A DNA stretch of 57,321 bases from Natronococcus amylolyticus DSM 10524 (lineage in GTDB: Archaea; Halobacteriota; Halobacteria; Halobacteriales; Natrialbaceae): contig NZ_AOIB01000013.1 in assembly GCF_000337675.1 (NCBI RefSeq), forward strand, positions 90,328 to 147,648, written 5' to 3'. Positions 36,669 through 57,321 of the stretch are shown in pieces. The position numbers were made by a program, and so were the translations under genes. Every line of letters starts with the position of its first letter. Positions within the stretch are counted from its first letter, which is position 1. Below the pieces are notes generated by a model. That model was not told where the DNA came from. It ran no database searches and saw only the letters and a program-made list of their open reading frames with translations.

Positions 36669-38128
36669 CCGACCAACGAGAGGCGATCCGTTCGAACGCG
36701 AAGTACCTGCGAAACGTCCGGCCGATCGACCCGGAAGAGATCTGTGACTACGTCGAGGGCAGCCCCCATCCGGCGGTCGTCCGCCAACACCTCCGGGAGG
36801 ACGCCGTCTCGCTAGGCTTGCTCGAGCGCGAGGACGGGACCTTCGTCCCGGTCGGAGACGAGCCCGTGAGTCCGCGTCGCGGCCCCGTCGAGCGCTTTCC
36901 CGACCGCTACGGGGAGCGCCTCGAGAACTTGCTCGTCGACCGCTACGGCGTCGACTGGCATCGCGACGGGACGGGCCAGCTTCTGCGGTCGACGATCCGG
37001 CGGTTCAAATCCCGCTACCTCGAGGGTCGGCCCGTCGAGTACGACGACGACGTCGCCGCGGGCTACGCGATCTACCATCTTCCGGGCTACTACGCGGCGG
37101 TACAGTACGCGCTCGACGATCTGGCCGAGCGGGGGCTGCTGGGCCGGGAGCTTCGCGTCCTCGACATCGGCGCCGGCGTCGGCGGCCCCGCCCTCGGGCT
37201 CTGTGACTACCTCCCCGACGACGCCGTCGTCGACTACCACGCGATCGAACCCAGCGCGGCCGCCGACGTCCTCGAACCGCTGCTCGAGGAGACCGGGCGG
37301 AACGTCCACCCGACGATCCACCGAGACCCCGTCGAGGACGTCGCCCTCGAGTCGATCGGCGACGGCGAGGGGTTCGACCTCGTGCTCGCCTGCAACGTGC
37401 TGAGCGAACTCGCGGACGCCGAGGCGATCGCCCGCTCGGCGCTCGAGGCCCTCGAATCGGACGGGACGTTCCTCGGGATGGCGCCCGCGGACAGGAACAC
37501 GAGCATCGAGCTTCGCGACCTCGAACGTGACCTCGAGGGGACGACGGTCGCGGCCGACGCAGACGACTCGTCGGCCCGCGAAGTCACCGTCTACGGCCCG
37601 ACGGTTCGGCTCTGGCCCGGCGCGACGCCGACCGATCGCGGCTGGTCGTTCGATGCCCGGCCCGATCTGGCGGTGCCGTCGTTCCAGCGCCGGCTCGACG
37701 AGGCGACGCCCGAGGACGACGCCGACCACGCTCCCGGCGAGTTCGTCAACGTCGACGTCCAGTTCTCCTACTCGCTGCTCCGTCTGGACGGAAGACGCCG
37801 GATCGAGATCGACCTCGCGACCAGCGACTGGGCGAAGATGGCCGAGTCCGAGCGCCACGTCACCAACCGTGTCGACCTCGCCGCAGCGAAACTCAGCCGC
37901 TCGCTTTCGGGCGAGGATTCGAACCCGCTGTTCAAGATCAGCGACGGCAGCGAGGCCGTCGACCACTACGCCGTCCTCACGCGGGAGAGCTCGCTCAACC
38001 GGCCGCTGCTCGAGGCCGACTACGGCGAGGTGCTCACCTTCGAGGGAATCCTGGTCCTCTGGAACGACGACGAGGAGGCCTACAACCTGGTCGTCGACGA
38101 GGAGACGATCGTCGACCGGATCGGGTAG
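36665..38128 (+). CDS. Rsm22-like small-subunit-associated methyltransferase
   Basis: A 487-residue protein. A N-terminal helical domain (TDQREAIRSNAKYLRNVRPIDPEEICDYVEG) is followed by a SAM-methyltransferase fold with LRVLDIGAGVGGPALGLCDYL, the acidic YHAIEPS and DLVLACNVLSELADAEAIARSAL. The family (Rsm22/METTL17) associates with the small ribosomal subunit in mitochondria, where an iron-sulphur cluster can be present; in archaea the role is undefined. The gene starts inside the tyrA stop (ATGA), so the two are coupled, an association with no obvious metabolic reason. Confidence 0.8.
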   Translation: MTDQREAIRSNAKYLRNVRPIDPEEICDYVEGSPHPAVVRQHLREDAVSLGLLEREDGTFVPVGDEPVSPRRGPVERFPDRYGERLENLLVDRYGVDWHRDGTGQLLRSTIRRFKSRYLEGRPVEYDDDVAAGYAIYHLPGYYAAVQYALDDLAERGLLGRELRVLDIGAGVGGPALGLCDYLPDDAVVDYHAIEPSAAADVLEPLLEETGRNVHPTIHRDPVEDVALESIGDGEGFDLVLACNVLSELADAEAIARSALEALESDGTFLGMAPADRNTSIELRDLERDLEGTTVAADADDSSAREVTVYGPTVRLWPGATPTDRGWSFDARPDLAVPSFQRRLDEATPEDDADHAPGEFVNVDVQFSYSLLRLDGRRRIEIDLATSDWAKMAESERHVTNRVDLAAAKLSRSLSGEDSNPLFKISDGSEAVDHYAVLTRESSLNRPLLEADYGEVLTFEGILVLWNDDEEAYNLVVDEETIVDRIG

Positions 38129-42463: not shown

Positions 42464-43405
42464 TTAGCAGTAGTAGCTGTTCTTCACGTCGTCGACCTTC
42501 TCGCCGATCTTGTCGTCGACGTCGTCGTGCTTGTCGTCAACCTTCTCGTCGGCCTTGTCGTCGACGTCGTCGTGCTTGTCGTCAACCTTCTCGTCGGCCT
42601 TGTCGTTGACCTTCTCGTCGACGTCGTCAGCCTTGTCGTCAACCTTCTCGTCGGCCTTGTCGTCAGCCTTGTCGTCGACCTTCTCGTCAGCCTTTTCGTC
42701 GACCTTTTCGTCGACGTCGTCAGCCTTTTCGTCGACCTTTTCGTCGTTCTTGTCGTCAGCCTTTTCGTCGTTCTTGTCGTCAGCCTTTTCGTCGTTCTTG
42801 TCGTCAGCCTTTTCGTCGTTCTTGTCGTCAGCCTTTTCGTCGTTCTTGTCGGCCTTCTCATCGACGTCGTCGTGCTTGTCGTTGACCTTCTCGTCGACCT
42901 TCTCGTCGACGTCGTCAGCCTTCTCGTCGTTCTTGTCGTTGACCTTCTCGTCGACCTCTTCGTCAGCGCAGACTTTGTCGTTGGCCTTCTCATCGACGTC
43001 GTCGTGCTTGTCGTTGACCTCTTCGTCAGCCTTGTCGTCGGCCTTCTCGTCGACGTCGTCAGCTTTGTCGTCGGCCTTCTCGTCGACGTCGTCAGCCTTG
43101 TCGTCGGCCTTCTCGTCGACATCGTCAGCCTTGTCGTCGGCCTTCTCGTCGACGTCATCAGCCTTGTCGTCAACCTTCTCGTCGGCCTTGTCGTCGACGT
43201 CGTCAGCCTTGTCGTCAACCTTCTCGTCAGCCTCCTCGTCAGCCTTGTCGTCGGCTTTCTCTACCTCTTCTTTGTCGACGCCGTCGTCGACTTTCTCCTC
43301 CTCGTAGTCGTCATCGGTCGCAATCACGCCAGCACCGCTGACGATGGCCACCGCCATCATCAGCGCCATTACGAGCGCAATCGCACGTTTTGATATATTT
43401 ACCAT
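42464..43405 (-). CDS. Secreted Lys/Asp-rich repeat protein
   Basis: A 313-residue protein. It has a Sec-type signal (SKRAIALVMALMMAVAIVSGAGVIA) followed by about 285 residues made almost only of Asp, Glu, Lys, Ala and Val. Two repeat types alternate: an 11-residue unit ADDKADDVDEK (four perfect or near-perfect copies) and an 8-residue unit NDEKADDK (four copies). The 11-residue period suits an extended right-handed coiled coil or a group 3 LEA-like hydrophilin. Lysine is very high for a haloarchaeal protein. There are two cysteines: one mid-chain (DKVCADEE) and one at the C-terminal end (NSYYC). There is no membrane anchor. Start ATG 43405 is taken over an upstream ATG because it begins the signal peptide. 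Confidence 0.75.
   Translation of the reverse strand: MVNISKRAIALVMALMMAVAIVSGAGVIATDDDYEEEKVDDGVDKEEVEKADDKADEEADEKVDDKADDVDDKADEKVDDKADDVDEKADDKADDVDEKADDKADDVDEKADDKADDVDEKADDKADEEVNDKHDDVDEKANDKVCADEEVDEKVNDKNDEKADDVDEKVDEKVNDKHDDVDEKADKNDEKADDKNDEKADDKNDEKADDKNDEKADDKNDEKVDEKADDVDEKVDEKADEKVDDKADDKADEKVDDKADDVDEKVNDKADEKVDDKHDDVDDKADEKVDDKHDDVDDKIGEKVDDVKNSYYC
42757..42852 (-). repeat. 24-bp tandem repeat, four copies
   Basis: Four tandem copies of a 24-bp unit (42757-42780, 42781-42804, 42805-42828, 42829-42852). The first three are identical and the fourth differs at its last base. The unit encodes the 8-residue NDEKADDK repeat on the minus strand. Near-identity at synonymous positions points to recent unequal exchange or slippage. 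Confidence 0.9.
43028..43159 (-). repeat. 33-bp tandem repeat, four copies
   Basis: Four copies of a 33-bp unit (43028-43060, 43061-43093, 43094-43126, 43127-43159) differ from each other at one or two bases. They encode the 11-residue ADDKADDVDEK unit on the minus strand. Diverged relatives of this unit continue on both sides. Confidence 0.88.
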
Positions 43406-43980
43406 TGGTAGCTCTGCACACCCGAAGCGGCTATCGCCGCCATGCATCGGGTGCACGGGAACAGCTAACCAGAGACCGGATAGTAAGTATCTGCAAGCTA
43501 CTCAGCTCCGCTCGAGAGAGAATCACCGCCGAAAACCCTAGATACTGCTTACGTGCCTGCCGGGATCCGTTCGTCGCGCCGAACTATTTGAATCATGATA
43601 CTGTACACGTTCGGGACAGTTCCCGTGTGACGCCGAAATCGTAGCGAACACAGGTAACGCGACCGTCAGACGGAGAATGAGTCGTTTCGAAGCCTGACCT
43701 GTAGCCACCGACGACCTTCTTTCCCAGCTCTGCTGACGTGTAGTACTGTCATAGAGCGGAATCTATCGGTGAGATTCCCATTCGATCGGCGGTAGGGTTG
43801 GCGTACACAACGTACCCACCGATCGAGTCGGCTCGAGATAGGCCGAGCGCCGAGGGGGGTCCACCTGTATCACGAATGGATCGACCGGCGGATATCGGAC
43901 TTGGTTCTCGACGATCGGTTCCCCCGAAAACGCGACTCACTCGACTCGAGAGCGGTACCCGTTCTCAGACGCGAACGAGT
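43406..43980. other. Intergenic region without recognised gene
   Basis: These 575 bases separate the repeat-protein start from the CHRD gene stop. TGATATATTT at 43391-43400, just inside the gene start on the left, and the A/T-richer stretch following it may contain the repeat-protein promoter (minus strand). Short open frames occur but none has family-like sequence or a credible start. Confidence 0.5.
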
Positions 43981-45060: not shown

Positions 45061-46014
45061 ATGACGTCTCAAGGCCGTTGGAATCGACGACGAGTGCTGG
45101 TTTTGGCGGGCGGAATGTCGGCTCTCGCCGGGTGTAGTACGGACGAGGAGTCCGCGAACGGTTCGGAGTCAGAGTCGGACGACGGGAACGAAACCGACGG
45201 CGACGACGACGGAGAGGGTGTGGACGACGCGGAGACCGACGAACTCGAGGGCGAGACGGACGAGGATGGAGACGACGCCGAGGAAGAGGCAAGCGAAGAC
45301 GAGGACGAGGATGATGCTGAAGCGGAGGAGGGGAGTGAAGACGAAGATGACACCGAGGCGGACGAGGACGGAGACGACCCCGAGGCGGAGTCGGAGTCGA
45401 CGGACGAGGACGACGATTCGGCAGCGGAGGAACCCGAACTGTCGGAGTTCACCCTCCGGGTGATCGACGCCAACGGCGATCCGGCCGAAGCGATGCTCGT
45501 CGCCGGTGAGGGTGAGCCCCTGGACGCCGACGTTCCCCTCGAGTTCACGGGCGTGACGGGATCGGAGGGGTACCATCACAACCGGATCTACGAGAACGAG
45601 TACACGATCGAGATCGACCATCCCGACTACGAGGGGACCACGATCGAACACACCCACGACGGCCCGAGTGAGGTCACGGCCGAACTCGACGTCGAAGTAG
45701 ACACCGACGAACCCGACGAGGACGCCAACCCGTCCGAGGACGAGGCGCCCGACCACGCGGAGCTCATCCTCCGAGCCGTCGACCTCGACGGCCAACCGGT
45801 CTCGGGCGCGGTCGTCAGCGGCGAAGGCGAACCCCACGAGGCCGACATCCCCCTCGAGTTTACCGGCCTCACCGGCGAGGACGGCTACCACCACAATCTG
45901 ATCTACGAGAACGAGTACACGATCGAGGTCGATCACGACGACTACGAACCGACGACGGTCGAACACACCCACGACGGCGACAGCGAACTGACCGTCGAAC
46001 TCGAGCTCGAGTGA
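45061..46014 (+). CDS. Surface lipoprotein with two carboxypeptidase-regulatory-like repeats
   Basis: A 317-residue exported protein. Signal RRRVLVLAGGMSALAGC gives lipidated Cys25. Residues ~26-125 are a stalk rich in Asp, Glu and Ser. Two domains of about 85 residues follow (about 126-215 and 232-317), each with EFTG(V/L)TG...GYHHN, YENEYTIE, a DH pair and (I/V)EHTHDG. The repeated His pattern (about five per domain) is unusual and might bind a metal. The domain type resembles carboxypeptidase-regulatory/Big-like folds with a Gly-Glu-Gly-Glu start. The gene is divergent from the CHRD gene. Confidence 0.75.
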   Translation: MTSQGRWNRRRVLVLAGGMSALAGCSTDEESANGSESESDDGNETDGDDDGEGVDDAETDELEGETDEDGDDAEEEASEDEDEDDAEAEEGSEDEDDTEADEDGDDPEAESESTDEDDDSAAEEPELSEFTLRVIDANGDPAEAMLVAGEGEPLDADVPLEFTGVTGSEGYHHNRIYENEYTIEIDHPDYEGTTIEHTHDGPSEVTAELDVEVDTDEPDEDANPSEDEAPDHAELILRAVDLDGQPVSGAVVSGEGEPHEADIPLEFTGLTGEDGYHHNLIYENEYTIEVDHDDYEPTTVEHTHDGDSELTVELELE

Positions 46015-56188: not shown

Positions 56189-57321
56189 ATGAGCGAGGAC
56201 GAGGCGAACGGTGACGAGGAGCCGGCCGACGAGCCGGACGAGCAGGAAACGGCCGACGAGGAACCCGAAACAGAGGCGGCCGAAACCGAGGAGGAAGCGG
56301 AAGACCAGGCCAACGAAGAAGCCGAATCCGACGAAAACGGGACCGAGGAGGAGTCAGAGTCGGCTGAAGACCCAGAGGATGAAGAGGACGTAGGTGACGA
56401 AGCGGACGCAGAAGAGGAAGAAGGCAAAGCGGACGCAGACGACGAAGTGGACGAAGCGGACGCAGACGGCGAAGCGGACGCAGAAGACGAAAAAGATCTG
56501 GACGAAAATGCGAACGAACTCGAGGCGATCCGCGGTCAGCTCGCCGCCTTCGAGACCCAGATCGAGGAGTTCGAGGCCGAACTCGAGGCCGCCGAGACCG
56601 AGGACAACCTCGACGAGGTCGAGCCGAAACTCGAGGCGTTCCGCGAGGAGCTCGAGGGCCTCGAGATTCCCGAACCGCCCGAGGAGGACGAGGACGACGA
56701 AGACGAGGAAGAGGAAGACGTCGTCCACCCCGAGGAGGAGCTCCAGGACCGCTACGACGAGATCGAGGACGACCTCGACGACCTCGAGGACGATCTCGAG
56801 GACCAGCGCGGGCCCTACGCCGAGGACGTGATCGGCGAGATCAACGGCGTCGCCGGAACGATCACCGGCACCCGCTGGACGATCGAGGGCGAGGAGGAAC
56901 TGATCGACCCCGTCGAGGCGTTCGTCGCGAAGACGAACGACCTGCTCGGGGCGTCCGTCACGGTTCCCGACGACCTCGAACCGACCGAGTGTGCCGAACT
57001 CCGCGAGGACGTTCCCGACGAGGACGAGGGCGTTCCCGAGCGGCTCGCGGCGACGCTCGAGGACGTCACCGACGCCGTCGAGGACGCCGATCTCGATCCC
57101 GACGAGGACGCCGAGACGATCGCCGCGCTGCTCGAGGCGACCGACGACCTCGAGGACGGCGTCGACGACGCCACCGAGTGGACCGATCTGAAGGTCCGCG
57201 AGCAGCTCCGCCGCGAGGGCTTTTACGACGTCCTCGACCACGTCAAGGACTTCCCGCCGGAGTGGCACGCCCTCAAAGTCCACGAGAAGCAGGGCAACGT
57301 CGAGATGATCCTGCTCGCACT
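56189..57321 (+). CDS. Acidic coiled-coil protein, 3' truncated (HEAT-repeat-like C-terminal part)
   Basis: At least 377 residues, cut by the window edge. Residues 1-105 are almost entirely Glu, Asp and Ala (a disordered acidic tail). Residues ~106-195 form heptad-like coiled coils (ELEAIRGQLAAFETQIEEFEAELEAAE, EELQDRYDEIEDDLDDLEDDLED). A compact middle part (GTITGTRWTIEGEEELIDPVEAFVAKTN) follows, and the end reads LKVREQLRREGFYDVLDHVKDFPPEWHALKVHEKQ. I recall similar haloarchaeal proteins continuing into HEAT repeats. Start ATG 56189 follows CC; role unknown. The gene may follow pssA on the same strand (67-base gap). Confidence 0.7.
   Translation, partial: MSEDEANGDEEPADEPDEQETADEEPETEAAETEEEAEDQANEEAESDENGTEEESESAEDPEDEEDVGDEADAEEEEGKADADDEVDEADADGEADAEDEKDLDENANELEAIRGQLAAFETQIEEFEAELEAAETEDNLDEVEPKLEAFREELEGLEIPEPPEEDEDDEDEEEEDVVHPEEELQDRYDEIEDDLDDLEDDLEDQRGPYAEDVIGEINGVAGTITGTRWTIEGEEELIDPVEAFVAKTNDLLGASVTVPDDLEPTECAELREDVPDEDEGVPERLAATLEDVTDAVEDADLDPDEDAETIAALLEATDDLEDGVDDATEWTDLKVREQLRREGFYDVLDHVKDFPPEWHALKVHEKQGNVEMILLA

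What the first reader, a model, noticed from the sequence alone, without database searches (positions are those of the whole stretch)
42464..43405. Lysine-rich 11-residue-repeat secreted protein in a halophile
Haloarchaeal proteins avoid lysine, yet this secreted protein is dominated by ADDKADDVDEK and NDEKADDK units with near-identical DNA copies. The 11-residue period is that of group 3 LEA proteins and right-handed coiled coils. It may be a desiccation-protective hydrophilin or a surface fibre, possibly cross-linked through its C-terminal cysteine.
Basis: partly seen in the sequence, partly recalled or inferred. Interest (0 to 1): 0.58.

Follow-up and report, generated by a model that had tools for sequence, protein, structure and literature searches.

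The report
Secreted lysine-rich disordered repeat protein
A salt- and alkali-loving archaeon of the genus Natronococcus carries a real, conserved gene for a secreted, probably unfolded protein built mostly of aspartate, lysine and glutamate, which breaks the usual rule that such organisms avoid lysine; what it does is not yet known.

Summary
The gene is real: 42464-43405, minus strand, encodes 313 residues with a Sec-type signal peptide and a 284-residue mature part with 36.6% Asp, 19.4% Lys, 13.4% Glu and no Arg. In 241 other predicted genes of the same genome Lys averages 1.7% (maximum 7.4%) and Arg 6.8%. Orthologues exist in 5 of 9 Natronococcus genomes, window included; one lysine-free relative lies in another genus. 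Signal peptide and first acidic segment are under purifying selection. The repeat tract is rebuilt in every species (143-284 mature residues), yet the last residue is cysteine in 6 of 6. A 5' leader hairpin is conserved.

The 11-residue period is not a family feature: over the whole length it exceeds shuffles only in this copy. AlphaFold2 predicts disorder. No LEA family matches and glycine is 0.7%, so it is not filed as group 3 LEA or hydrophilin, though it may work like one. Charge spacing is wrong for a single alpha-helix. Best reading: a clade-specific secreted disordered polyampholyte, paired or tethered by its terminal cysteine, acting as a hydrated envelope polymer. Identity is strong; function is inferred.

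The parts
42464..43405 (-). Gene for the secreted Asp/Lys/Glu-rich protein, 313 residues plus stop
   Evidence: Open frame with ATG; orthologues in 4 further Natronococcus genomes; pS above pN in 20 of 20 comparisons
43319..43405 (-). Signal peptide, residues 1-29 (cut before TDDD inferred)
   Evidence: Read by eye; near-identical in orthologues and recognisable in G074
43202..43318 (-). Conserved acidic segment after the signal peptide, residues 30-68
   Evidence: Alignment A1; purifying selection measured on residues 30-55
42485..43201 (-). Repeat tract, residues 69-307, units of four and seven residues, rebuilt in every species
43043..43141 (-). Three exact ADDKADDVDEK copies, residues 89-121
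42749..42844 (-). Four NDEKADDK copies, identical in DNA, residues 188-219
42467..42484 (-). C-terminal KNSYYC; cysteine is the last residue in 6 of 6 relatives
   Evidence: only 1 of 242 predicted genes of the sample ends in Cys, this one
43407..43470 (-). Conserved leader hairpin just upstream of the start (RNA hairpin or DNA palindrome)
   Evidence: no Rfam match
43478..43494 (-). Conserved block GCAGATACTTACTATCC, possible promoter element (inferred)
   Evidence: Alignments A3 and A4, seen in window, G002, G005, G007 and, with changes, G074

Best explanation
A lineage-specific secreted protein of Natronococcus. The signal peptide sends it across the membrane (inferred from sequence). The mature chain is an intrinsically disordered, well-mixed polyampholyte of Asp/Glu and Lys (predicted), whose tract grows and shrinks by in-frame duplication of short units while its composition is roughly kept (shown by comparison, except that N. 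occultus is richer in Lys). The terminal cysteine, the only one of the mature chain in two orthologues, would pair two chains tail to tail or tether the chain to a surface thiol in the oxidising alkaline medium (inferred). The result would be a hydrated charged brush or gel in or on the cell envelope that holds water and ions and spaces or protects the wall (inferred). Because lysine titrates near the pH of soda lakes, its net charge would change steeply with alkalinity (calculated for the mature window protein: -94 at pH 9, -119 at pH 10, -143 at pH 11).
For: Coding and conserved: pS above pN in 20 of 20 comparisons among five sequences. Signal peptide conserved. Predicted disorder: mean pLDDT 45.9 and 48.0 in two orthologues. 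Charges better mixed than in shuffles, z -3.3 to -4.5 in 4 of 4. Lys 19.4, 19.8, 19.6 and 32.9% over mature lengths 284, 242, 143 and 231. Cysteine last in 6 of 6 and alone in G002 and G005. No enzyme, binding or structural family matches. Conserved leader suggests controlled expression.
Against: No evidence of expression, location, disulfide or any function. The relative in G074 has no lysine, so lysine is not needed for whatever the wider family does. The gene is missing from 4 of 9 Natronococcus genomes, so it is dispensable in the genus. AlphaFold2 had only four rows and poor confidence, which does not prove disorder; N. occultus shows two low-confidence helices. Neighbouring genes give no hint of a wall role.
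Confidence: 0.4

Rival explanations
1. It works like a group 3 LEA protein: disordered when wet, folding into amphipathic 3-11 helices on drying or on membranes, and so protecting the envelope of a brine organism that dries out.
For: Disorder prediction; 11/3 period in the window protein and in local 33-residue stretches of G002 and N. occultus; sub-threshold Apolipoprotein match, a resemblance also reported for some LEA homologues (PMC10808001, passages).
Against: Period 11/3 is not kept over the whole length in 3 of 4 orthologues; very small apolar face; no LEA family match; strongly acidic and secreted.
Confidence: 0.2
2. A binder of divalent or transition metals: Asp-rich repeats with regularly placed His and a terminal YYC or CYC bind Ca, Mg, Cu or Zn, which are scarce in soda brine.
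For: Asp 36-40% and 4-11 His per mature chain; terminal Cys next to Tyr in the Natronococcus proteins.
Against: His number varies 4-11 between orthologues; no known metal site; abundant Lys would compete for the acidic side chains; no transporter beside it in the neighbours tested.
Confidence: 0.1
3. Wall linkage: lysine side chains join the protein to the glutamate/glutamine polymer of the Natronococcus wall by amide bonds.
For: Natronococcus occultus wall holds L-glutamate (PMC10897055, passage; the poly-gamma-glutamine structure is recalled). Lysine without any arginine in the mature part of 4 of 4 orthologues, where the other genes use mostly arginine (Lys/(Lys+Arg) 0.217).
Against: No cross-linking enzyme looked for or seen nearby; CapC absent from 9 of 9 genomes; 4 of 9 Natronococcus genomes lack the gene; the absence of Arg may simply follow from unit duplication.
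Confidence: 0.07
4. A rigid single alpha-helix or right-handed coiled-coil fibre on the surface.
For: Uncharged residues mostly spaced 3 or 4 apart in three of four orthologues; low-confidence helices in N. occultus.
Against: Lys-Lys pairs at i,i+4 outnumber acid-to-Lys pairs in 4 of 4 (35:18, 30:16, 17:9, 44:19); Asp rather than Glu; no conserved period; no helix in the window model beyond the signal peptide.
Confidence: 0.07
5. A non-coding minisatellite with accidental open frames.
For: Several frames on both strands are open across the array; the units are DNA repeats.
Against: Signal peptide, frame and last residue kept in five species, pS above pN in 20 of 20 comparisons; conserved leader.
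Confidence: 0.01

Closest known systems
Group 3 LEA proteins (11-mer repeats; Pfam LEA_4, name recalled)
   Same: Low-complexity, charged, predicted disordered, variable repeat number; 11-residue units with A, A and V on one narrow face in part of the window protein
   Different: No family match; 11-mer not conserved; far more Asp, tiny apolar face, secreted
Hydrophilins
   Same: Very hydrophilic (GRAVY -2.03 to -2.62 in four orthologues)
   Different: Glycine 0-0.7%, whereas hydrophilins are defined by high glycine (PMC4190154, passage)
Single alpha-helix (ER/K) domains
   Same: Mostly Asp/Glu and Lys with short charge periods
   Different: Wrong i,i+4 pairing, Asp instead of Glu
Lysine-free relative in G074 (L026/L068 9452-10174)
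   Same: Signal peptide, leader repeat and terminal cysteine
   Different: No Lys, six N-glycosylation sequons, Ser/Thr-rich acidic tract; different neighbourhood (an apparent solute-binding protein follows; read by eye)

Membership tests
Group 3 LEA protein | Match to a LEA family profile | tested here: not met
   Pfam at E up to 1 lists only Apolipoprotein and Cornifin, both below cut-off
Group 3 LEA protein | Conserved tandem 11-residue motif | tested here: not met
   Three exact 11-mers in the window protein; period 11/3 above the 99th percentile of shuffles in 1 of 4 orthologues
Group 3 LEA protein | Disorder in water | tested here: inconclusive
   Low pLDDT in two models from four-row alignments
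Group 3 LEA protein | Helix on drying, protection from desiccation | not testable with these tools
   Needs CD and a deletion strain
Hydrophilin | High glycine (above about 6%, threshold recalled) | tested here: not met
   0.7, 0.4, 0.7 and 0% in four mature orthologues
Hydrophilin | High hydrophilicity | tested here: met
   GRAVY -2.03 to -2.62
Single alpha-helix domain | Acid-to-Lys/Arg pairs at i,i+4 dominate | tested here: not met
   Lys-Lys pairs outnumber them in 4 of 4 orthologues
Secreted (Sec) protein | Charged n-region, hydrophobic core, small residues at the cut | tested here: inconclusive
   Seen by eye and conserved; model helix 6-21; no signal predictor on hand

The most novel reading that the evidence does not exclude
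A lysine-only (no arginine) secreted polymer of Natronococcus whose lysines are enzymatically linked to the glutamate/glutamine polymer of the wall and whose terminal cysteine joins chains, making an archaeal protein-polyamide composite wall whose mesh is tuned by repeat number.
Probability: 0.05. Interest if true: 0.75.

Novelty: new variant of a known kind. Interest (0 to 1): 0.4.

Why it matters
Lysine avoidance is a well-known mark of haloarchaeal proteins (general knowledge). A conserved secreted protein with 19-33% lysine and no arginine is a natural exception in which the cost and benefit of lysine in high salt and high pH can be tested, and a natural polyampholyte that must stay soluble, or gel, in alkaline brine. 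If it proved to be a wall protein it would add a protein component to an unusual polyamide wall.

Tried and rejected
Non-coding minisatellite: rejected by orthologues and pS above pN. Canonical LEA or hydrophilin membership: rejected on family match, period and glycine. Single alpha-helix: rejected on charge spacing. Solved relatives: two weak PDB matches, VPS24 and circumsporozoite protein, E 0.075 and 0.74, taken as low-complexity noise. NCBIfam: lipase_YSIRK_Sa and GvpQ, far below cut-off. Virus or plasmid origin: nothing in viral contigs (104 stretches matched a pattern, none confirmed), plasmids or phages. Polyglutamate synthesis: CapC in 0 of 9 genomes, with the Bacillus subtilis control positive. 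Leader hairpin as a shared regulatory element: found only at this gene, 5 of 9 genomes, nothing in Rfam. The sigma-70 scan does not apply to archaeal promoters and found nothing. Papers: no library paper holds haloarchaea + lysine-rich + repeat protein + secreted, late embryogenesis abundant + haloarchaea, Natronococcus + intrinsically disordered, or haloarchaea + intrinsically disordered + lysine + secreted; a search for locus tags 'natoc' returned only noise. These searches cover open-licence papers only.

Rows dropped; 22 of 61 genomes had a match at E <= 0.001; I kept 5 (G000, G002, G004, G005, G007) and dropped 17. One search printed frames for 15 of the 17, but it took the forward frame of every locus, so only 8 (L006, L007, L008, L016-L020) are the matching frame; the 7 minus-strand ones (L009-L015) and the two without a locus were judged by E-value, long open frames and lack of the signal peptide; 21 of 125 genomes at E <= 0.01; I kept 6 and dropped 15 (E 8e-5 or weaker), of which I read 9 and not the other 6; 24 of 392; I kept 4 and dropped 20 unread (E 3.4e-4 or weaker). 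One search aligned a wrong stretch for G004; redone. The gene caller is home-made; its start for this gene is the upstream GTG (330 aa), and some calls, such as 36812-37966, may be wrong-strand frames.

Full report
What is there. The minus strand from 43405 to 42464 holds one open frame with an ATG start and 313 residues. Residues 1-29 read as a Sec signal peptide; residues 30-313 are 36.6% Asp, 19.4% Lys, 13.4% Glu, 11.3% Val and 10.2% Ala, net charge -87, with no arginine. The tract is made of four-residue units such as ADDK, VDEK, NDEK and VDDK (37 counted) and seven-residue units such as ADDVDEK and HDDVDDK (12 counted), together 232 of 284 residues. Tandem Repeats Finder reports overlapping arrays of periods 12, 21, 30, 33, 45 and 66 here.

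How unusual. I called genes by codon usage in the window and in 240 kb of the same contig. Of 242 genes this one has the highest lysine, 17.0% counted from the upstream GTG, the next having 7.4%; it is also the only one that ends in cysteine. The other 241 average 1.73% Lys and 6.79% Arg, and none of them lacks Arg. The lysine excess and the lack of arginine are therefore real outliers in this sample of the genome.

Relatives. Whole-genome searches find orthologues in G002, G004, G005 and G007, all of the same genus; with the window genome, 5 of 9. G007 is Natronococcus occultus SP4: its third contig has 287,963 bases and 3,001 bases of it match NC_019976.1, of the same length, at 100%. G005 corresponds to the MAG CSSed10_265 (contig of 37,130 bases with the match at the same place). 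A more distant relative in another genus of the family, G074, shares the signal peptide (MANISTRAIAITMTLMMALAVVSGAGVIAT), the leader repeat and the last cysteine, but its mature part has no lysine, 39.8% Asp and six N-glycosylation sequons. A search of 392 genomes drawn from the order added no convincing member. In G006 the two flanking genes lie about 200 bases apart and the gene is missing. In G001, G003 and G008 the signal-peptide search finds no convincing match, and no such frame was seen in the 1.5 kb beyond the neighbour gene. A tree of neighbouring proteins is compatible with a single gain, but the fork is weak (support 46/9).

Coding and selection. Among five sequences, ten pairs and two segments (residues 1-29 and 30-55), pS exceeds pN in 20 of 20 comparisons; pN is 0-0.116 and pS 0.116-0.815. 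Against this stable head the tract is rebuilt in each species: mature lengths 284, 242, 143 and 231, with other units such as HDDYADKNDEK in G005 and KADKYTDKADD in N. occultus. The fifth orthologue, G004, is split by its assembly inside the gene; its two ends lie on contigs C29 and C57. Lysine is 19.4, 19.8, 19.6 and 32.9% and net charge per residue -0.31, -0.29, -0.28 and -0.07 in window, G002, G005 and G007. The last residue is cysteine in 6 of 6, counting G004 and G074. In G002 and G005 it is the only cysteine of the mature chain, so any disulfide there must be between chains.

Structure. AlphaFold2 with a four-row alignment gives mean pLDDT 45.9 for the window protein, with no helix beyond the signal peptide, and 48.0 for N. 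occultus, with two low-confidence helices at 115-142 and 169-180. Charges are better mixed than in shuffles (z -3.3 to -4.5 in 4 of 4), in part a consequence of short units. Hydrophobic periodicity over the whole length beats the 99th percentile of 500 shuffles, among six periods tested, at 11/3 and 15/4 in the window protein, at 19/5 in G002, at 19/5 and 4 in G005 and at 7/2 in N. occultus. Local 33-residue windows with a strong 11/3 signal exist in G002 and N. occultus too. A helix-compatible 3/4 spacing thus recurs, but no single period is kept. Lys-Lys pairs at i,i+4 outnumber acid-to-Lys pairs in 4 of 4, unlike single alpha-helices.

Leader. The 65 bases before the start fold into a hairpin in the window (-35.6 kcal/mol, z -4.19); z is -1.06 to -2.89 in the other five relatives. 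Three of 19 consensus pairs have a two-sided change, but the covariation term is slightly unfavourable (+0.23). A covariance model built from these six finds it in 5 of 9 genus genomes, once each, always at this gene. It may equally be a DNA palindrome bound by a regulator.

Interpretation. Shown: a conserved, clade-restricted gene with a signal-peptide-like start, fast repeat turnover, extreme composition and an invariant terminal cysteine. Inferred: its work, a disordered polymer outside the cell, paired or tethered by the cysteine. The neighbours (aldehyde ferredoxin oxidoreductase, an unnamed 115-residue protein, a CHRD protein) give no clear clue. N. occultus has a wall with L-glutamate (PMC10897055, one passage read; PMC8909396, one passage read), so a wall role is attractive, but CapC is absent from 9 of 9 genomes and nothing ties the protein to the wall. 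A LEA-like role stays possible: the 11-mer stretch resembles apolipoprotein repeats below threshold, as is reported for some homologues of a tardigrade group 3 LEA protein (PMC10808001, passages).

Verdict. Real and odd, but of a known kind (secreted low-complexity, probably disordered proteins), with a composition new for haloarchaea as far as the searches here show; the LEA filing is not earned.

Noticed in passing
L036 (G006:C19:3191-3610), L037 (G076:C1:3378884-3379087), G007:C1:3442946-3447964: Another kind of haloarchaeal small secreted protein (MKRAL... signal peptide) with HDDKHDKK or HDNDKHDK repeats, in some followed by Asn/Gln-rich curlin-like repeats (resemblance recalled), in clusters; 28 of 61 relatives gave a match.
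   Followed up: partly
L006, L007, L017, L018: Haloarchaeal proteins with an apparent two-helix membrane anchor followed by long Glu/Lys/Val repeats that look like a hendecad coiled coil; they matched only by low complexity; only sub-threshold Pfam matches for L006 and L018.
   Followed up: no
window 43407-43470: Leader hairpin specific to this gene; whether it acts as RNA or as a DNA operator is open.
   Followed up: partly
window 45061-46014: Apparent lipoprotein with a long Asp/Glu linker and two copies of a carboxypeptidase-regulatory-like domain, no lysine.
   Followed up: no
window 56369-56804: Another tandem array of Asp/Glu-type codons on the + strand, while the gene caller preferred the minus strand; the coding strand was not settled.
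   Followed up: no
L005/L067 (G004:C29 start) and L073 (G004:C57): The G004 assembly breaks inside this gene, so its repeat number there cannot be read.
   Followed up: yes
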